A stretch of 41,144 nucleotides of DNA from Luteitalea sp. (GTDB lineage Bacteria > Acidobacteriota > Vicinamibacteria > Vicinamibacterales > Vicinamibacteraceae): positions 1 through 41,144 of the forward strand of contig WHTT01000058.1 of the NCBI GenBank assembly GCA_009377605.1, in the 5' to 3' direction. The notes under the pieces were generated by a model. The model had not been told where the DNA came from, ran no database searches, and saw nothing but the letters and a program-made list of their open reading frames with translations. This document shows, piece after piece, positions 71 to 35,451 of the stretch; position 1 is the first letter of the stretch, and each line of letters opens with the position of its first letter. A program made the translations under genes and the position numbers.

Positions 71-1317
71 TCAGAGGTGCCGGCGCACCAGGTCGAGCGA
101 CGCCTGGACGGCGTGCGTACGCACGAGATAGCGAGACCCGCTGAAGCGGAATGTGCGCACATCTGCACCGCCGGGCGTCTCGACGGCGATCACGACCGTC
201 CCGACCGGTTTGGCCGGCGTGCCGCCCGTCGGTCCGGCGATCCCGGTGATGCCGAGGCCAACCTCCACGCGCGCCCGTTCGCGGATGCCGCGGGCCATGG
301 CCAGCGCCACGGCCTCGCTGACCGCGCCTTCGCGCTCGATGAGCCGCTCGTCAACGCCGGCCAGCTCCACTTTTGCCGCGTTGCTGTACGCCACGACGCC
401 GCGCTCCAGGTAGGCAGAGCTCCCCGCGACATCGGTGAGGCGGCCACTGAGCATCCCACCGGTGCACGATTCCGCAACGGCGATCCGGTATCCGCGCTCG
501 CGCAGTAACTCCCCCACGACCGCTTCGAGTGGTTCGCCCTGGCTGAACACATGGTCGCCCAGCACGCCCGAGGCTTCGGCGACCGCCCGGTCGAGCACCT
601 CCGCCGCAGCGCCTGCGCGCTCGGACCGCGCTCGCAAATGGAGCTCGACCAGGCCGGGCGACGCGAGCGTTGTGACGCCAATGCCAACTGGCTGCGTGCG
701 CCACCGCGCATAAAGCGGCTGCATCGTCTGCTCCACCTGCGACTCGGTGACGCCCGTCATGCACAGCGTGCGCTTCTCCTCTCGCGCCCCTGGGGCGCGC
801 CGAGCAAGCGAGCCAACCACCAGCGTTGCCAACATCGGCAGCGCCTCACGGGGTGGCCCCGGTAACAAGAGAATCACCTGATCGCCTTGCTCGACCCATT
901 GTCCCGGTGCTGTGCCGTGTGCATTGGGCACAGCCGTGGCCTCCTCCAAGACGAGCGCCTGACGACGATTCACCCGCGGCATGACGAGCCCTCGCGCCGC
1001 GAAGCGCTCCTCGATGGCATGAACGATGTCTCGCTGCTCTACTAGCTGGCGGCCCAACACACGCGCCACGGCTTGGCGCGTCACATCATCGTCGCTGGGG
1101 CCGAGCCCGCCAGTTGCAATCACGAGGTCTGCGCGCGCGAGGGCGTGCTTGAGCGCCGCGTCGATCTCCTCCACCTCATCGCGTACGACGGCGCTGACAC
1201 CGTCTCAATGCTCAGGGTCGACAGCTCGCGCGCGACCTGCTCACCGAGGGTTTCGTGGCGCACGCCGGTCAAGAGCTCCGTCCCAATTGCGACAATCGCG
1301 GCACGCCGTAGCAGCAT
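71..1317 (-). pseudogene. cinA: CinA-like protein (nicotinamide-nucleotide amidohydrolase), frameshifted
   Basis: Family role: the CinA C-terminal domain deamidates nicotinamide mononucleotide in pyridine-nucleotide salvage, and the N-terminal domain is MoCF/COG1058-like. Two overlapping frames encode it. The ATG at 1317 gives the typical N-terminus with AIVAIGTELLTG, and this frame stays CinA-like to about 1200. From there the homology continues one frame over (VVRDEVEEIDAAL, then TGGLGPSDDDVTRQA) to the TGA at 71-73. The C-terminal domain is complete: AVAESCTGG, GVVAYSN, GITGIAGPTGG and the KPVGTV strand. The downstream frame hits a stop at 1205-1207, so a one-base indel near 1198-1204 splits the gene. 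This is either a real pseudogene or a sequencing error; every other motif is intact, so the damage is recent or technical. The start lies directly behind a dispersed repeat (1320-1374) whose AAGGG could serve as Shine-Dalgarno. It is last in a minus-strand run after pgpA. Confidence 0.85.
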
Positions 1318-1319
1318 CA

Positions 1320-1374
1320 GAACCCTTGAGAAACCGAAACTTGACGTAGTGAGTCACGTTTCGGGGCTCGCAAG
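1320..1374 (-). repeat. Dispersed leader-like repeat with hairpin, copy 1 (upstream of cinA)
   Basis: A roughly 55-bp element that recurs at 24784-24838, with a shorter derivative at 26565-26580. Read on the minus strand it runs GC-AGCCCCGAA, then a stem-loop (plus-strand 1334-1364, CCGAAAC paired with GTTTCGG and an inner TGAC/GTCA pair), then TTCTCAAGGGTTCTG immediately before the cinA ATG. In both full copies the CTCAA-GGTT block ends a few bases from a minus-strand start codon and could supply the ribosome-binding site. The function as a cis-regulatory RNA is inference. Confidence 0.55.
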
Positions 1375-1389
1375 TGAGCGTCGGGGGGC

Positions 1390-1404
1390 GCGGCCAGAGG
1401 CCGC
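1390..1404 (-). terminator. Hairpin downstream of pgpA (no U tract)
   Basis: A perfect 6-bp GC stem with a 3-base loop (GCGGCC-AGA-GGCCGC on the plus strand) sits 6 bases beyond the pgpA stop codon. No T-run follows, so it may be only a transcript-end stabiliser or a Rho-dependent end. Confidence 0.3.
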
Positions 1405-1410
1405 GGCCCG

Positions 1411-1959
1411 CTAGAACATCCAACTCGGTGCAATCGCGACCAGCACACGGAGCCCCACGTGGGCATACAACGCGGCAAAGAGGTCATCGGTCATGACCCC
1501 CCAGCCGCCGGGAAGGGTCTCTGCGCGTCGGCACGGCGGTGGCTTGAGGACATCGAAGATTCGAAAGAGCACGAAGCCCACCAAGGCACCCGTCCAGCCC
1601 ACTGGCAGGAGCGTCAGCGTGAGCAGCATGCCGAAAATCTCATCGATGACAACCGGCCCGGGATCGTCGTGGCCGAAATGTCGCTCGGCCACCGTGGCTG
1701 CCCAAACACCTGTGAGGTAAATGACTGGAATCGCGACGAGCTCGAGCCATGGCTGGCCGCCGAAGCGAAGTGCAGCATACAGTACCAGCCCCACCGCCGA
1801 GCCGAATGTGCCCGGCGCGAACGGGATGTAGCCCACTCCTGCACCGGTGCCAAGGACCAACGCCACCGAGCGGACGAGGGGTCTCTGGACCGAGGGAGCA
1901 AGAGGTTCGCGCGATCCTCTGCTCCATCTCTGGCCTCGTTGATCCCGTGATCCCGTCAT
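1411..1959 (-). CDS. pgpA: Phosphatidylglycerophosphatase A
   Basis: PgpA dephosphorylates phosphatidylglycerophosphate to phosphatidylglycerol at the inner membrane, the last step of PG synthesis. The 182-residue product has the family pattern: GTGAGVGYIPFAPGTFGS near residues 37-54, hydrophobic helices around AVGLVLYAALRF and LVAIPVIYLTGVW, the acidic signature VIDEIFGMLLTL, then LFRIFDVLKPPPC and GGWGVMTDDLFAALYA. Length is normal apart from a 25-30 residue basic N-terminal extension, so the true start could be later. The ATG at 1959 overlaps the TGA of the upstream RDD gene in an ATGA junction (1956-1959), which implies translational coupling and supports this start. Confidence 0.9.
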   Translation of the reverse strand: MTGSRDQRGQRWSRGSREPLAPSVQRPLVRSVALVLGTGAGVGYIPFAPGTFGSAVGLVLYAALRFGGQPWLELVAIPVIYLTGVWAATVAERHFGHDDPGPVVIDEIFGMLLTLTLLPVGWTGALVGFVLFRIFDVLKPPPCRRAETLPGGWGVMTDDLFAALYAHVGLRVLVAIAPSWMF

Positions 1960-3767: not shown

Positions 3768-3819
3768 AGGGTGACAAGGTGACAGGGTGAGGGGGTAACA
3801 GGGTGAGGGGGTGAGGGGG
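3768..3819 (+). repeat. G-rich GGGTGA(GGGGG) tandem repeat
   Basis: Irregular tandem repeats built from GGTGACA and GGGTGAGGGGG units occupy the intergenic space between the TPR gene and the insertion sequence. The same word occurs in inverted orientation on the other side of the IS (5191-5212). The G-tracts could form a G-quadruplex; that is not testable here. Confidence 0.7.
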
Positions 3820-5190
3820 CATAAGCGTTAACCTAATAGTTGACCTCGCACGCAGACCAGCGGTAGCCTGTGCTGCATGACACCTGCCCCGAATGACGAA
3901 TGGCGAGTCATCCAATCGATGCTGCCGTCCGGTTGGCGGGAAGCCGCGCGAAGCTGCGGTGCGTTTCGACGCGCGCGCTATCTGGACGATCCCGCCGTGC
4001 TCCTGCGCCTGCTGCTGTTTCACGCGGTGAACGACGGCGGGTTGCGCGAAACCGTCGCCCAAGCCCGGGCCAGCGGTGTGGCGGCGCTGTCGCAGGTCGC
4101 GCTGCTGAAGCGCCTGCGCACGTCGGCGACATGGCTGGCCTGGATTGGCGCCGGCCTCTGCCGCGAGCTGCGGGACGTTCCCCGATTGCCGCACGGCGTG
4201 CGGCCCCGGGTCGTGGACAGCACGACGGTGCAAGGCCCCGCCAGCACGGGCACGGATTGGCGGGTCCACTATGCCCTGGACCTGACGACCCTGACCTGCG
4301 ACTGGTACGAACTGACGGATGCCCACGGGGGCGAACTGCTGGAACGCACGCCCATGCGAGCGGGCGATGTGGTGCTCGGCGACCGGAATTATCTGCGGCC
4401 CGCCGCCCGCGCGGCGCAGGCGCACGTGTTGCTGCGCTTGCGGTGGACGCACGCGCCGATGCGCGCCCTGAGCGGGCGGACGTTTCGGGCGCTGGGCCAT
4501 GCCCGTCGTCTCAAAGTCGGGCAGGTGGGCGAGTGGCCGGTCCGGTTGCGCGATCCGCAGGGGGCCGACATCGACGGCCGGGTCATCGCCACGAAACTGC
4601 CCGCCCCCCTCGCGGCCAAGGCCAAGCGGCGCGCCGTCAAGGCGGCGACCAAGAAAGGCAAGCGGCCCCATCCCCGGTCGCTGGAGGCCGCGCAGGTCGT
4701 GATGGTGTTTACCACCCTGCCGACGACACGGCTGGCGGCGGGCGACGTGCTGGAGCTCTATCGCTTTCGCTGGCAAATCGAACTGGCGTTCAAGCGCCTC
4801 AAGCAACTGCTGAAACTGAGTCGCCTGCCCCACAAGGATCCGCGGGCCGCCCACGGCTGGATCCTGGCCAAGCTGGTCGTGGCCTTGCTCCTGGAAACGC
4901 TCTATCGCACCGCCCACGCGATTTCCCCCTGGGGCTACCGCTTCCAACAACTCGGGGCGGTCCCGCACTAAGGGGATCGCGCCGATCCCCACACTGTGGC
5001 GCTGGACGGCGGTGTTCGTCCATGCTCTGCGGCAAGCACTGTGCCCGTCACCTGGATTGGTACAGCTCATGGATGCTACGGCTCGCGGTGAACTCAATCG
5101 CGACCTTCATGATGGTCGCCGTCGTCGTAGACTGCAATCTGCTGCTCTTCCCAGTCTCCTGAAAGGCTGGATATTAGGTTAACGTATATG
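3820..5190 (+). mobile_element. IS4-family insertion sequence
   Basis: A single transposase gene is bounded by inverted repeats. 3820-3838 (CATAAGCGTTAACCTAATA) matches the reverse complement of 5172-5190 at 17 of 19 positions. The similarity continues outward for 10 more bases (3810-3819 against 5191-5200, GGTGAGGGGG). Either the true terminal repeats are about 29 bp or the element sits in an inverted G-rich site. I find no convincing direct target duplication. Element size is 1.37-1.39 kb, normal for IS4. It lies between two divergent genes (TPR protein and lolA) and therefore replaces or separates their promoters. Confidence 0.85.
3877..4971 (+). CDS. IS4-family DDE transposase, C-terminus probably frameshifted
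   Basis: A 364-residue DDE transposase. Visible catalytic motifs are VVDSTTV (first Asp), VVLGDRNYL (second Asp) and the IS4 signature Y-x2-R-x3-E-x6-K in YRFRWQIELAFKRLK (catalytic Glu). The stop at 4969-4971 looks premature. One frame over, starting around 4970, a coherent IS4-like tail continues (IAPIPTLWRWTAVFVHALRQ and on to LLKGWILG). It ends at a TAA at 5180-5182, exactly inside the right terminal repeat, as expected for a full-length gene. A one-base deletion near 4968-4972, or a sequencing error, is the simplest explanation. All catalytic residues lie upstream of the lesion. Confidence 0.85.
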   Translation: MTPAPNDEWRVIQSMLPSGWREAARSCGAFRRARYLDDPAVLLRLLLFHAVNDGGLRETVAQARASGVAALSQVALLKRLRTSATWLAWIGAGLCRELRDVPRLPHGVRPRVVDSTTVQGPASTGTDWRVHYALDLTTLTCDWYELTDAHGGELLERTPMRAGDVVLGDRNYLRPAARAAQAHVLLRLRWTHAPMRALSGRTFRALGHARRLKVGQVGEWPVRLRDPQGADIDGRVIATKLPAPLAAKAKRRAVKAATKKGKRPHPRSLEAAQVVMVFTTLPTTRLAAGDVLELYRFRWQIELAFKRLKQLLKLSRLPHKDPRAAHGWILAKLVVALLLETLYRTAHAISPWGYRFQQLGAVPH

Positions 5191-5246
5191 CCCCCTCACC
5201 CCCCTCCCCCCTCGCTCCTTCCTGAGCCTGTGCTATCATCCGGCCA

Positions 5247-7887: not shown

Positions 7888-7924
7888 GCTGTGAGTTGTG
7901 AGTTGTGAGTCAGCTCTCAGCGAT
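7888..7924 (+). terminator. Direct TGAGTTG repeats within a GAGCTG/CAGCTC stem
   Basis: Just after the secretin stop, three TGAGTTG-like words are enclosed by GAGCTG and CAGCTC, a weak 6-bp stem. It is located between convergent genes (secretin and murA), so a transcript-end role is plausible. There is no T-run. Confidence 0.25.
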
Positions 7925-7981
7925 GGTAGGGCGCGTCAGCCTCCCGCGCCGTCACGGCCGCCTTGGCGAGGCGGCGCTACC
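7925..7981. repeat. REP-like palindromic pair (modules A and B)
   Basis: Begins GGTAGGGCGCG and ends GGCGAGGCGGCGCTACC. It is a degenerate version of the two-hairpin unit at 34121-34185, in the same order. Its right end overlaps the murA stop codon (7977-7979). Related modules occur at 24883-24910 and 26620-26646. Confidence 0.6.
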
Positions 7982-9254
7982 GAGAACTCACCACTGGCTC
8001 CCGCTCTACCTGCGCGCCGAGTGACGTGAGCCGCTCGACCAGGCGCGCGTAACCGCGCTCGACTGTCTCGAGCGGGGCGAGCGAGCTCTCCCCGTCGGCG
8101 GCAAGCGCCGCTGCAATGAGCGCCATGCCGGATCGCAGGTCGCGGCTATCGAGATCGCGGCCTCGCAACGGCGTGCGCCCCGTAACGACAATGCGGTGCG
8201 GATCGCAGAGAAAGAGATCGGCCCGCATTCCACTCAGCTGTTCCAGCGCGAAGAGGCGCAGCTCGTACATCCAATCGTGAATGAGCGTGCGCCCCTCGGC
8301 CTGGGTTGCGAGGACCGTGATGAGGCTGACCATGTCACTTGGAAAGCCGGGCCACAGCCCCGTGACGAGACGCCGAATAGCGATGCAAGAAGACTGCCCA
8401 ACGTGCAGCACCTGATCATCCAGGCGACAGTCAACGCGCATACGCTGCATGACCGACGTGATGGGCTCCAAATCGTCCGGGTGCGCGCCGACGATCTCGA
8501 CCTCCCCGCTCGTCACCGCGCCGAGCACTGCCCAGCTGCCAGCCTCGATGTAGTCGCCTCTCAGGGTGTGCGTCGCACCGCGAACACGGCGTGTCCCGTG
8601 GACTCGGATACGCGGCGTCCCTTCTCCCTCCAGGTCGATCCCCATCGCTTGCATGAAGCGGCAGAGCTCGACGACATGCGGCTCGCAGGCGGCGTGTCGA
8701 ATCTCGGTGACACCCTCCGCCGCGGCCGCCGCAAGCAGCGCCGCTTCGGTCGCCGTCACCGAGGCCTCATCTAAATAGAACGAGGCACCAACAAGTCTCC
8801 CCTCCGGCGCCTCGAACACGTGCCCGGCTTCGGCCGGCAACTCGCGGGCGCCGAGTGCGCTGAGCGCTTGTACGTGGGTGTCGATCGTGCGACGCGTGGG
8901 AAAATCACCGCCGGGCGGCGCAAGCTGTACCCGGCCCTGCCGAGCCAGCAGCGGCCCAAGCAGCAGCACCGAGCCGCGAAGACGGCCGACCAGCTGCGGG
9001 TCTGGTTGATCCCCCGACAGCTTCGCGCAGCAGATCGTCACGTCGGTGGTGCCGCCGCCACTCACCTCTGCGCCTAAGCCCCGCAAGAGCTCGAGCATGG
9101 CTTGGACGTCACGAATGCGCGGCACGTTGTGCAGCGTGCACGGTTGATCGGTGAGTAGACAGGCGGCGATGAGCGGCAGCGCCGCATTCTTGTTGCCGTC
9201 GACGTCAATCCGGCCGCGCAGAGGCCGGCCGCCGACAATACGTAGGACAGACAT
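7977..9254 (-). CDS. murA: UDP-N-acetylglucosamine 1-carboxyvinyltransferase with Asp in place of catalytic Cys
   Basis: MurA transfers enolpyruvate from PEP to UDP-GlcNAc, the first committed step of peptidoglycan synthesis in the cytoplasm. The 425-residue product has the expected length and fold: VDGNKNAALPLIAACLLT with the conserved Lys22, the LHNVPRIRDV block, the LRGDYIEAGSWAVLGAVTSG segment and WPGFPSDMVSLITVLATQAEG. The active-site loop reads PPGGDFPTRRTIDTH, with Asp117 where E. coli has Cys115. Families with this Cys-to-Asp change (for example Mycobacterium and Chlamydia) are intrinsically resistant to fosfomycin, so the same is predicted here. It begins two bases after the murB stop and is co-transcribed with it. 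FPTRR instead of the usual IGARP marks it as a divergent MurA subgroup. Confidence 0.93.
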   Translation of the reverse strand: MSVLRIVGGRPLRGRIDVDGNKNAALPLIAACLLTDQPCTLHNVPRIRDVQAMLELLRGLGAEVSGGGTTDVTICCAKLSGDQPDPQLVGRLRGSVLLLGPLLARQGRVQLAPPGGDFPTRRTIDTHVQALSALGARELPAEAGHVFEAPEGRLVGASFYLDEASVTATEAALLAAAAAEGVTEIRHAACEPHVVELCRFMQAMGIDLEGEGTPRIRVHGTRRVRGATHTLRGDYIEAGSWAVLGAVTSGEVEIVGAHPDDLEPITSVMQRMRVDCRLDDQVLHVGQSSCIAIRRLVTGLWPGFPSDMVSLITVLATQAEGRTLIHDWMYELRLFALEQLSGMRADLFLCDPHRIVVTGRTPLRGRDLDSRDLRSGMALIAAALAADGESSLAPLETVERGYARLVERLTSLGAQVEREPVVSSR

Positions 9255-13108: not shown

Positions 13109-14242
13109 ATGGGGCAGGTCACGCGCAGATACTTCCTTCAACGATCGTCCACCGTCGCAGCAGCCGCCGCGCTCGGCGGCGGACGACCACTCGCAGCCGC
13201 CGCGCAGCGCGCTCGCACCTCGAAGACGCCGTACGACTTCATCCTGGTCGAGGGTCATCGCGACATCTACGAGTTCAATGACCGTTTTCGAGCCGGGGAA
13301 TCCTCGCCGCTCGTCGACAGCATGCTGCCGCGATACCTCGCGGGAGGCATCGATGTCGTGATCATGCCGGTCGGCGGCACGCACCCGGAGCTGCGTGGCG
13401 GCAACCACAAGATGCTGGAAGGCACGCTGCAGACCTTGGACATGATCCTCCGGGAGATCGCCAAGACCGGCGGGCAGGCGGCGGTCATCAGAACCAAGGC
13501 AGAGATTCCCACGAAGCCCGACAAGCAGCGAGTGCTCTTCTTTCTCGACATGGAGGGGGCCGAACCGATCTAGGTCGATCCCGAGTCTGGTTTCTCGCGC
13601 GCGACACGGCTGGCGCTCGTCCGAGACTTCTACCGGATGGGCGTTCGCGGAATCCAGCTGACCCACAATGAGCGGAACTATCTCGCCGACGGGATCGCCA
13701 TGGAAGGCCGTGGCGCCGGAAAGCTGACCCCGTTCGGCATCGAAGTCATCGAAGAGATGAACCGGCTCGGTATGATGGTCGGTGTCTCGCATCTCGCGGA
13801 GGTCGGCATCCGCCACGCCGCCGAGGTTTCCACCGCCCCAATCGTGTCGACGCACACCAATATTCGGCCGTTCGTCGACACGCCCAGGCAGCACAGCGAC
13901 GCTGCGGTGAAGGCCATCGCGGCCACGGGCGGCTTGGTGGGCGTTCGGTATATCCTGACCCGAAGCCAGACCGTGCCATACCCCTTGCTCACCGACGAGA
14001 TCGAACATATCGCCAACCTGGTGGGCGTCGAGCATACCGGCGTCGGCTGGTTCGGGCACGACAAGGGCGATCCCCGGGGAGGGGCGCATCCCGGCCACAC
14101 CGAGGTCGAGCTGCAATCCATGTACGAGCAGCGGGACAGCTTCTTGCAGCCCCTGAGCCAACGTGGCTTCTCGGATGACCAGATCGGCCTGGTGCTCGGA
14201 GGGAACTTCCTTCGGGTGTGGCGCGAGATCCTGAAGGACTAG
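13109..14242 (+). pseudogene. M19 (renal) dipeptidase, Tat-exported, with in-frame amber codon
   Basis: M19 metallopeptidases hydrolyse dipeptides, including D-amino-acid-containing ones, with two zinc ions. The frame is continuous for 377 codons from 13109 to 14242 except for a single TAG at 13571-13573. The protein starts with a twin-arginine signal (TRRYFLQRSSTVAAAAAL). The first metal motif is EGHRDIYEFND (HxD), followed by FLDMEGAEPI, the stop, then VDPESGFSRATRLALVRDFY and GVRGIQLTHNERN. Further ligands are MVGVSHLAEVG and VSTHTNIRPF. The last acidic motif is degenerate (GHDKGDPRGG instead of the usual D-F-D-G). A one-base change creating TAG, or a sequencing error, is likely; I see no frameshift. 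The terminal TAG lies in the CTAG target site of the adjacent MITE. Confidence 0.8.
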
Positions 14243-14400
14243 TGGGCTGTCTCAGTCATTTGTGAAGGGGCTGGCGGAGCGCGGCGCCCGGCTGGCACGG
14301 CGCGAGGAGGGAGCATACAGGCGGTATATGACCGACGAGCAACGCCGCCAGGCGGACTCCCGCCCCCGCAAGGCGCTTCACAAATGACTGATACAGCCCA
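14243..14400. mobile_element. MITE, 158 bp with 25-bp terminal inverted repeats
   Basis: The ends 14243-14267 and 14376-14400 are inverted repeats matching at 24 of 25 positions (outer end TGGGCTGT, inner end TTTGTGAAG). Direct CTAG copies flank the element at 14239-14242 and 14401-14404, as expected for a 4-bp target duplication. The GC-rich interior of about 108 bp encodes no protein. CTAG duplications are known for part of the IS5 family, so a helper transposase of that type is plausible. It landed on the stop codon of the dipeptidase, recreating TAG from CTAG. Confidence 0.85.
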
Positions 14401-14450
14401 CTAGCGCCGTACCGTGCCCACGTGCCGTCCTACACAGACCAGGAGGTGTG

Positions 14451-24783: not shown

Positions 24784-24910
24784 CAACCTTTGAGAACCCT
24801 GACTTTGACGCCTCGTATCAAGCTTCGGGGCTGGCAACCGACGTCACGAACACCTCGGCGAGGCGTCCGTACCTTCCGCTCTGGTAGGGCGCGTTCGCCG
24901 AATGCGCCGT
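24784..24910 (-). repeat. Dispersed leader-like repeat, copy 2, with adjacent REP-like module
   Basis: 24784-24838 matches 1320-1374 closely: on the plus strand AACCTTTGAGAA, then TTTGACG, then TTCGGGGCT-GCAA. It lies directly upstream of the SDR start on the minus strand. The stem (plus 24798-24829) keeps its pairing although the paired bases differ from copy 1. Beyond it are a GGCGAGGCGTCC word (24857-24868) and a palindrome, GGTAGGGCGCG followed by TTCGCCGAATGCGCC (24883-24908), also present in the copy at 26565-26650. The rest of 24911-25045 shows nothing I recognise. Confidence 0.55.
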
Positions 24911-26564: not shown

Positions 26565-26650
26565 AAGAACCCTTGAGAACTCGACACGGGCGCCCCGGCG
26601 AGGCGTCCCTGCCAAGGAAGTAGGGCGCGCTCGCCGAGCGCGCCGCGAAC
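26565..26650. repeat. Dispersed repeat, shortened copy with REP-like palindrome
   Basis: AAGAACCCTTGAGAAC (26565-26580) matches the first block of the repeats at 1320 and 24784. The hairpin block is missing. GGCGAGGCGTCC (26598-26609) and TAGGGCGCG with CTCGCCGAGCGCGCC (26621-26644) then align with the second half of copy 2. It looks like a deletion derivative, here between two plus-strand genes rather than before a minus-strand start. Confidence 0.5.
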
Positions 26651-26683
26651 GTCTGGGGCAGCCCGCTAAAACATGAGGACCCG

Positions 26684-34118: not shown

Positions 34119-34185
34119 TGGTACGGCGCGTTCGCCGAACGCGCCGTGAGCCATGGTAGGGCCGCCTCGGCGAGGCGGCCCTACC
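34119..34185. repeat. Two perfect REP-like palindromes (modules A and B)
   Basis: 34123-34147 is a perfect 25-base palindrome (12-bp arms ACGGCGCGTTCG). 34155-34185 is a perfect 31-base palindrome (15-bp arms GGTAGGGCCGCCTCG). Seven bases separate them. Degenerate versions of the pair occur at 7925-7981, and single modules at 24883 and 26620. Module B ends at the stop codon of the truncated TonB gene. The remainder of 34009-34118 shows nothing I recognise. Confidence 0.7.
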
Positions 34186-35108
34186 TAGAATTCCACGCGG
34201 AGCGTGAGAGCCAGGATGCGCGGCGGGATGACGTCCACGTACCTGCCGGTGTCGGTGCTGTTGATGATGGAGTTGTTCGCGCCCGTGAAGTCGAAGTCTG
34301 CGTCGAGCTCGGTGAACTCCACCTGGTTGAATAGGTTGTACGCCTGGAACTGCAGGCGGATGTTGGCGCTCGGGCTCAGCACGCGCAGCGGAAAGCGGCG
34401 CTCCAACGTGAGGTCCCACGTGCTCCAGGACGGGTGGCGCAGCATGTTGAGCGGCGCGTTGCCGAAGTTGCCTTCGGTTGCGCTGACTGGCTGCGCCATC
34501 GCGAAGGCGTCCGGGTTGAAATGGACCGCAACCGCCGGATCGGGGTCGACCGTGAAGCCGCTGTCGATCGACTCACCGGTCAGCATGCAGCGCGCCGCTT
34601 CGTCCTCGCCGGTGACCGCGGCGAGCCCCGTGAGGGTCGGATCGGAGTTCGCAATACCAGCATTGTTCGAGCTGCACGTCGGGTTGACCGGCGCCCCGCT
34701 CAGGAACTTCGTCACACCGGCCACGAGCCAGTCGCCGAGCACGGCCTTGAGGATCGGCGTGTTCGGCGTGGGATTCGGCACCATGTAGCTGTAGTGCACC
34801 ACCAGGTTGTGGGGCCGGTCCAGCTCTGTCGGCCCCCAGTACCGCGCCCGCAGCGCCTCCTCTCCTCCGAGCTGCTCCGTGTACGGATCGTAGCCCTGCA
34901 ACCCTCTTCCCCTCGAGTACGTGTACGCCGCGCCGAACTGCAAGCCACCGGCCAACCGGCGCTCCACTTTCAACTGCAACGAATGGTAGGTCAGCGAGTC
35001 CACGCCGCTGACTACGTCGCCAACCTCGCCGATGGCGAGACCGATCATCACCACGATGTGGGACACCACCCACATCCACGATCGTGCACGTCTCCAGATT
35101 TTCAGCAT
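34185..35108 (-). pseudogene. Second TonB-dependent receptor, internally deleted in frame
   Basis: 307 residues from the ATG at 35108, which has GGAGGGGG just upstream. The N-terminus is a signal-like segment (RRARSWMWVVSHIVVMIGLA). Within about 35 residues it passes directly into the last quarter of an Oar-like barrel: LTYHSLQLKVERRLAGGLQF, AYTYSRGRG, ELDRPHNLVVHYSYMVPNP, GDWLVAGVTKFLSGAPVNPT, WSTWDLTLERRFPL, NIRLQFQAYNLFNQVEF, and a final strand ending LALTLRVEF. The regulatory domain, plug and most of the barrel are absent. The signal, start site and C-terminal beta-signal remain, joined in frame near nucleotide 35018. It cannot be a normal receptor. It is the third gene in this window with the same kind of loss, and it lies downstream of the cytochrome-containing PQQ dehydrogenase. 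Confidence 0.8.
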
Positions 35109-35451
35109 GTCCCCCTCCCACATCTCTTCATGCAGTCGTCCCCGAGCAGGCGTTCATTCCACGATGCGGGAAGAACGCCGCGCTCACTCCCTCACGATGC
35201 AAGCTCGATCTTGCGTGGTCGGCCGCCGTGCATCCCGGCGCCTCGTTTACTTCCGCATGCAAGTTTTTAAAGACCGGAACACAACGATCACACCGTCGCA
35301 ACCCTGATGTGCGCCGCGGCGAGATTTTTCGCCGCGCCGCCCTCGCTGAGTGCACGCCGCTGCTTGTCGTGTGGAGAACGTCGACGTCGTGTGGGCGTCC
35401 TGGCGCTGTTCAGGCGCTCAGTCGTTCCACACTACGAGACCGCGTCTAGGG
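35109..35451. other. Intergenic region with hairpin and near-palindrome
   Basis: 343 bp between two minus-strand genes, with no credible coding frame. ACTTCCGCATGCAAGT (35249-35264) is a near-palindrome centred on GCATGC next to an A/T-rich patch, and may be an operator or promoter for the receptor remnant. At about 35317-35338, CGCGGCGA and TCGCCGCG form an 8-bp stem around GATTTT, a possible end signal for the PQQ gene. Nothing else is recognised. Confidence 0.35.

What the first reader, a model, noticed from the sequence alone, without database searches (positions are those of the whole stretch)
1320..1374. Repeat with conserved hairpin directly before two unrelated start codons (candidate cis-regulatory RNA)
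Copies at 1320-1374 (before cinA) and 24784-24838 (before the SDR operon) share AGCCCCGAA, a stem and CTCAA-GGTT in the same orientation and distance to the start. Copy 1 pairs TGAC with GTCA where copy 2 pairs TTGA with TCAA, so pairing survives base changes. The CTCAAGGG part could be the ribosome-binding site and might be masked or released. A third, shortened copy (26565) lacks the hairpin.
Basis: partly seen in the sequence, partly recalled or inferred. Interest (0 to 1): 0.55.

Follow-up and report, generated by a model that had tools for sequence, protein, structure and literature searches.

The report
Mobile hairpin repeat at gene ends
The two matching hairpins are copies of a roughly 95-base repeat that has spread through two related bacteria, often landing exactly on a gene's stop signal and supplying a new one, so it looks like a small jumping-DNA repeat rather than a gene switch in front of genes.

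Summary
The shared sequence is real, but it is the left half of a dispersed repeat of about 95 bp (AACCCTTGAG–hairpin 1–GTGAGCGTCG–hairpin 2–CGCTAG). I read 106 full copies in two congeneric genomes, the window's own and Luteitalea sp. MAG Dino_bin50. In a 60-genome search no other relative gave a full copy. Both hairpins show compensatory changes. The strand opposite to the cinA and SDR mRNAs folds better in 98 of 102 copies. Copies lie in every arrangement to genes; few abut start codons.

The strongest positional signal is at stop codons. In 32 of 106 copies the repeat's right-end CTAG supplies the neighbouring gene's stop, and 30 of those genes end in Phe. Of ten tested with Pfam, nine are outer-membrane beta-barrels. 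The left flank carries the presumed old stop (TAG, TAA or TGA), so joining the flanks restores Phe–stop; unoccupied orthologues mostly agree. The target is YYAG|AA, best CTAG|AA.

Best reading: a non-autonomous, REP/BIME-like element with a fixed target, no terminal inverted repeat and no target duplication, probably moved in trans by an HUH/Y1-type enzyme (inferred; no transposase was linked to it). A regulatory RNA before start codons is not supported as the family's role.

The parts
1321..1416 (+). full copy of the dispersed repeat, AACCCTTGAG...CCCGCTAGAA; element proper 1321-1414 (to CTAG), AA 1415-1416 assigned to the target/gene side
   Evidence: 98-nt consensus match 91% over 1-98; CM hit 111.9 bits; alignment A1
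1317..1320 (+). left target flank TCAG; with the following AA it reads TTC-TGA on the minus strand (predicted pre-insertion Phe-stop of pgpA)
   Evidence: left4 of copy L015; inferred, not shown at this site because the G001 orthologue is unalignable here
   Evidence: fold; pair counts over the family
1379..1382 (+). CGTC motif in front of hairpin 2, invariant in the 38 aligned copies
1386..1409 (+). hairpin 2, GC-rich; A-U/G-C compensatory pair in the family
1411..1413 (-). TAG stop codon of pgpA (1411-1959 -) supplied by the right end of the repeat; preceding codon TTC (Phe)
   Evidence: L015; PgpA PF04608
24785..24912 (+). degenerate composite copy: left end and decayed hairpin 1, then REPIN-type sequence
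   Evidence: (D2, D3, D9)
26568..26672 (+). composite copy: left end AACCCTTGAGAAC, REPIN-type middle, right end CCCGCTAAAAC

Best explanation
The finding is one copy of a genus-restricted, non-autonomous, mobile-type repeat of REP/BIME kind. Shown: (1) about 95 bp, fixed order of parts, two hairpins and fixed ends, left AACCCTTGAG and right CGCTAG; (2) no terminal inverted repeat, and the two flanks are not a duplicated target; (3) the left flank is YYAG, mostly CTAG, and the base after the right CTAG is A, so the joined site is YYAG|AA; (4) at many sites the joined flanks are the terminal Phe codon plus stop of a gene, and the repeat's own CTAG then serves as the new TAG stop, so the protein is unchanged; (5) tandem copies share one CTAG, giving the junction CGCTAGAACCC. 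Inferred: copies arose by insertion of a single-stranded or circular intermediate 3' of CTAG, by an HUH/Y1 enzyme acting in trans, and the hairpins are kept because the enzyme reads them on one strand. Inferred side effect: at stop sites the mRNA carries hairpin 2 directly behind the stop codon.
For: Copy number and spread: 21 exact cores versus 1 control; 39 and 67 full copies read in the two genomes. Right end as stop: coding-like frames reach it in offsets 0/1/2 as 33/1/1. One of the 33 (L036, CAAG) is not a stop, leaving 32 of 106; 30 of these end in Phe. Left flank in those 32: CTAG 21, TTAG 6, TCAG 4, CGAG 1. TTAG/TCAG occur in 10 of 33 versus 3 of 73 in the rest, Fisher p 0.0004. Orthologues: of 10 stop-class genes compared, 6 lack the repeat in the other genome and all 6 end Phe-stop at the same position; the stop type predicted from the left flank matches in 4 of 6. 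A further empty site, not at a stop, is clean: L034/L085. Covariation. Strand asymmetry: 98 of 102. Barrel identity: 9 of 10 proteins tested are PF25183, 1 weak porin match.
Against: No transposase was tied to the repeat. G000 has 2 Y1_Tnp hits and G001 has 1; none of nine Y1 loci tested shows the repeat at blastn E<=0.05. Excision or transposition was not observed. GT versus AC mispairs in the hairpin-1 arms are only 110 versus 61, and copies are related, so 98 of 102 is not a probability. Two of the 6 empty orthologues carry a different stop type from the left flank (L158, L207). CTAGAA sites outside the repeat are themselves often gene stops (4 of 14), so sequence preference alone may explain the CTAG cases.
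Confidence: 0.78

Rival explanations
1. Cis-regulatory leader RNA before start codons that masks or releases the ribosome-binding site.
For: Hairpin covariation; AAGGG lies 5 nt before cinA ATG; about 6 of 106 copies have a minus-strand start within 12 nt of the left end (window copy added by hand).
Against: All four neighbour arrangements occur; the mRNA strand is the weaker-folding one in 98 of 102; the exact positional signal is at stop codons; no Rfam match; the congener's cinA site lacks a recognisable copy.
Confidence: 0.06
2. A domesticated 3'-end element: kept at stop codons of outer-membrane barrel genes because hairpin 2 right behind the stop tunes mRNA stability or termination (REP-like RNA function), mobile origin notwithstanding.
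For: Hairpin 2 follows TAG almost directly on the mRNA; 19 of 33 stop-class C-termini fit a beta-barrel pattern; site L022/L083 is occupied in both genomes with both hairpins changed in a coordinated way; TTAG/TCAG flanks are at stops far more often (6 of 7, 4 of 6) than background TTAGAA/TCAGAA sites (1 of 9, 4 of 83).
Against: 6 of 10 orthologous stop-class genes lack it; background CTAGAA sites are at stops about as often (4 of 14) as copies are (32 of 106); the RNA-sense strand folds less well.
Confidence: 0.15
3. MITE of a DDE transposase that duplicates CTAG.
For: CTAG on both sides in about half of the copies (left flank CTAG in 51 of 106).
Against: The left flank differs from CTAG in the other 55 while the right end stays nearly constant; the ends AACCCTTGAG and CTAGCGGACC (reverse complement of the right end) are not inverted repeats.
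Confidence: 0.05

Closest known systems
REP / BIME elements, GTAG- and CGTC-tagged (Di Nocera et al. 2013, PMC3733652; abstract, passages and section 15 read)
   Same: Short palindromes, intergenic and often at 3' ends of genes; that paper states that GTAG REP termini often provide the TAG stop to flanking ORFs; CGTC REPs lack a dedicated transposase, as here; CGTC sits in front of hairpin 2.
   Different: Here a ~95-bp unit with two unlike hairpins and fixed ends; CGTC REPs there have 8-9 bp stems with A/T in the first two positions and mostly a CCA-like tail, which hairpin 2 lacks; a YYAG|AA target with replacement of the old stop is not in the parts I read.
REPIN / RAYT system (Nunvar et al. 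2010, PMC2817692, passages read; PMC8049555, search listing only)
   Same: Non-autonomous, hairpins with compensatory changes, mosaic with REPIN-type sequence; some REPINs also abut CTAGAA (7 of 19 CTAC ends).
   Different: No GTAG head on the repeat itself, no inverted-pair symmetry, no RAYT gene flanked by it.
IS200/IS605 ends (hairpin and guide details recalled; absence of TIR and larger target duplication seen in a passage of PMC2817692)
   Same: Subterminal hairpins, insertion 3' of a fixed tetranucleotide, no TIR, no TSD, one strand favoured.
   Different: No tnpA linked; guide sequences not identified.

Membership tests
GTAG REP / REPIN | GTAG head beside a palindrome | tested here: not met
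   ends are AACCCTTGAG and CGCTAG
GTAG REP / REPIN | RAYT gene flanked by the repeat | tested here: not met
   nine Y1 loci incl. L052, L053, L135 show no copy at E<=0.05
CGTC REP | CGTC tag beside the palindrome, unpaired | tested here: met
   CGTC invariant in 38 of 38 aligned copies and outside the hairpin-2 stem
CGTC REP | 8-9 bp stem starting with A/T pairs, CCA-like tail | tested here: not met
   hairpin 2 is GC-rich and followed by GCTAG; features from PMC3733652
IS200/IS605-type non-autonomous element | no TIR, no TSD, fixed flanking target | tested here: met
   left-flank and right-end tables
IS200/IS605-type non-autonomous element | mobilised by a Y1 transposase | not testable with these tools
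   needs in vitro cleavage or a transposition assay
MITE (DDE type) | terminal inverted repeats and target duplication | tested here: not met
cis-regulatory RNA | consistent position and strand before start codons | tested here: not met
cis-regulatory RNA | match to a known Rfam family | tested here: not met
   0 matches in the window

The most novel reading that the evidence does not exclude
A target-specific single-strand mini-element whose insertion site is a gene's terminal Phe codon and stop: it carries its own TAG in the right register, so it can enter the 3' ends of outer-membrane barrel genes without changing the protein's last residue, and there places a strong hairpin right behind the stop codon, forming a distributed 3'-end regulator of the barrel repertoire.
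Probability: 0.2. Interest if true: 0.62.

Novelty: new variant of a known kind. Interest (0 to 1): 0.42.

Why it matters
It gives a case in which a REP-like repeat's insertion site can be read from the sequence: the left flank keeps the presumed old stop codon and the right end supplies the new one. CGTC-tagged REPs were described in 2013 as lacking a dedicated transposase (PMC3733652), so a repeat with defined ends, a defined target and empty orthologous sites offers a testable substrate. It also warns that hairpins with compensatory changes near genes need not be regulatory RNAs.

Tried and rejected
Rfam on the window: nothing. RAYT/IS200 genes as partner: L052 seems flanked by GTAGCGCAGGCC-type repeats and L135 by AAAAGGGGCC-type repeats (by eye); g2-genus RAYTs L138-L140 have GTAG-REPIN matches around them; none carries this repeat. 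TSD/MITE model: rejected on flanks. Autonomous full-size copy: not seen among the copies read, but not searched systematically at kb spacing. Remnant of the repeat at the G001 cinA site: looked similar by eye, but nhmmer gave no significant hit. Literature: no hit for C-terminal phenylalanine with outer membrane protein, insertion sequence and stop codon; 'Vicinamibacter' with 'REPIN' 0 papers; 'Luteitalea' with 'repeat' 41 papers, 10 listed, none on such repeats by title; one search gave only a Drosophila paper; PMC5009743 held no REP passage in the part kept. A report that REPs close to a termination codon reduce translation through ribosome stalling (Liang et al. 2015) is recalled and was not found here.

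Limits: one search scored 40 of 106 candidates, and one search scored 150 of 6829 and 150 of 7144, so copy numbers are lower bounds. The 106 copies are those at places I fetched; 108 full-length hits became 106 by dropping two antisense hairpin hits. Gene calls come from my own codon-score caller, not from an annotation pipeline. The background count used loci chosen partly around barrel genes; one search used loci chosen around the repeat only.

Full report
What is there. Left to right it holds AACCCTTGAG, a long hairpin, GTGAGCGTCG, a GC-rich hairpin and CGCTAG. The exact 12-mer AACCCTTGAGAA occurs 21 times in the genome against 1 for the reversed control, and about 15 of those 21 continue into the consensus. 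A 98-base consensus gave 66 rows at E <= 1, antisense hairpin hits included.

Where it occurs. In 60 genomes (own, 1 of the same genus, 5 of the same family, 53 of the same order), 5 had any match; only G000 and G001 had full copies, while G007, G012 and G050 matched 27-34 bases. A pattern scan of the genome-contig collection returned 45 stretches, all from MAG Luteitalea sp. Dino_bin50; records near the window's own genome may be left out there. Contig lengths identify G001 as that MAG. Luteitalea is in Vicinamibacteraceae, Acidobacteriota.

The set used. From fetched loci a profile found 108 full-length hits; two were antisense hairpin hits and were dropped, leaving 106 (39 G000, 67 G001). 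Sixteen have a left flank that is the right end of another copy, that is, tandem units sharing one CTAG.

Structure. On 35 copies, 31 pairs were scored: 90.2% of cells paired, 11 pairs changed on both sides (shuffled mean 4.1, 0 of 500), covariation score 0.112 versus 0.082. Sliding the partners by 1-3 columns lowers paired cells to at most 47%. One pair of hairpin 2 is G-C in 18 and A-U in 16 of 35. Variants of hairpin 1 such as GAGAACCC/GGGTTCTC and GAGGCACC/GGTGCGTC are both well paired. The strand written here folds better than its complement in 98 of 102 copies, with RNA and with DNA parameters. GT mispairs exceed AC mispairs only 110 to 61, so the asymmetry may be partly due to loops, and related copies are not independent. 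The cinA and SDR messages carry the other strand.

Ends and target. Before AACCC the flank is C/T, T/C, A, G: in 90 copies whose left flank is not another copy's right end, G 83 at -1, A 72 at -2, T 58 at -3, C 61 at -4. After the right CTAG comes A in 106 of 106, then A in 100 of 106. The right CTAG hardly varies while the left does, so this is not a target duplication. CTAGAA is rare: 357 in G000 and 467 in G001, against 3609 and 3410 for the reversed hexamer.

Stop codons. Reading toward the right end on the minus strand, a coding-like frame ends exactly at the repeat's CTAG in 33 of 106 copies, against 1 and 1 in the other two frames. One of the 33 (L036) has CAAG and so no stop, leaving 32: 31 TAG and 1 TAA. 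Thirty of these 32 proteins end in Phe, and 19 of the 33 fit a beta-barrel C-terminal pattern. Ten tested proteins gave PF25183 outer-membrane barrel in 9 and a weak porin match in 1. Their left flanks are CTAG 21, TTAG 6, TCAG 4, CGAG 1 (of 32). Joined to the AA on the right, 31 of 32 read a stop codon (TAG, TAA or TGA) in frame, after Phe in nearly all.

Orthologous sites. Sixteen site pairs were compared. L034 is cleanly empty in G001. L022 is occupied in both genomes, with both hairpins altered together. L033, L051, L042 and the window site lack a recognisable copy in G001, but the intergenic DNA is not alignable. Of ten stop-class genes, six orthologues have no repeat (L158, L186, L180, L068, L207, L038) and all six end Phe-stop at the same position; stop type agrees with the left flank in four (L186 TGA, L068 TAA, L180 TAG, L038 TAG) and not in two (L158, L207). 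At three (L149, L070, L187) the other genome has a REPIN or composite at the same stop. At one (L044) it has a copy in opposite orientation just beyond the stop.

How much is targeting, how much selection. Outside the repeat, in 360 kb of Dino_bin50, 4 of 14 CTAGAA sites are coding stops, much like 32 of 106 copies, so for CTAG the motif is enough. For TTAG and TCAG it is not: copies 6 of 7 and 4 of 6, background 1 of 9 and 4 of 83. Loss of insertions inside genes would explain that.

Mosaics. Some units keep the left end and CTAG but have REPIN-type sequence in the middle (L006, L008, L218), and some REPINs abut CTAGAA themselves (7 of 19 CTAC ends). In the window, a REPIN at 34119-34184 ends at the Phe-TAG of a barrel gene (34185-35123 -, PF25183).

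Mechanism and standing. The anatomy is that of REP/BIME-type, single-strand elements. Movement by an HUH/Y1 enzyme in trans is inferred; the Y1 genes found do not carry the repeat. Di Nocera et al. 2013 (PMC3733652; abstract, passages, section 15) already note that GTAG REP termini often provide a TAG stop and that CGTC REPs lack a transposase, so stop provision itself is known. The replacement of the old stop, the Phe-stop target and the two-hairpin unit with fixed ends were not in the parts I read.

Noticed in passing
window 71-1317 (-): cinA appears frameshifted: the N-terminal frame from ATG 1317 does not join the CinA/MoCF ORF 71-1174; a small indel near 1200 (assembly error or pseudogene).
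   Followed up: partly
window 34119-34184: REPIN-type repeat whose CTAC end abuts CTAGAA, the Phe-TAG end of an outer-membrane barrel gene (34185-35123 -).
   Followed up: partly
window 7924-7981: REPIN-type repeat whose GTAG head (on the minus strand) overlaps the stop of the EPSP synthase gene 7977-9254 (-).
   Followed up: no
L052:1447-1920: Y1_Tnp (157 aa ORF) with GTAGCGCAGGCC-type palindromes around it by eye, perhaps a cognate REP family of its own.
   Followed up: no
L218 versus L149: 96% identical flanks in the two genomes but different repeats (composite versus standard) at the same Phe-TAG; recent replacement or independent insertion.
   Followed up: partly
window 3807-3838 and 5172-5203: 32-nt inverted repeat, 94% complementary, 1.3 kb apart, bracketing ORFs at about 3877-5162; possible element ends (I2).
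   Followed up: no
window 14239-14404: 58-nt arms 81% complementary with 50 nt between; another large palindrome (I1).
   Followed up: no
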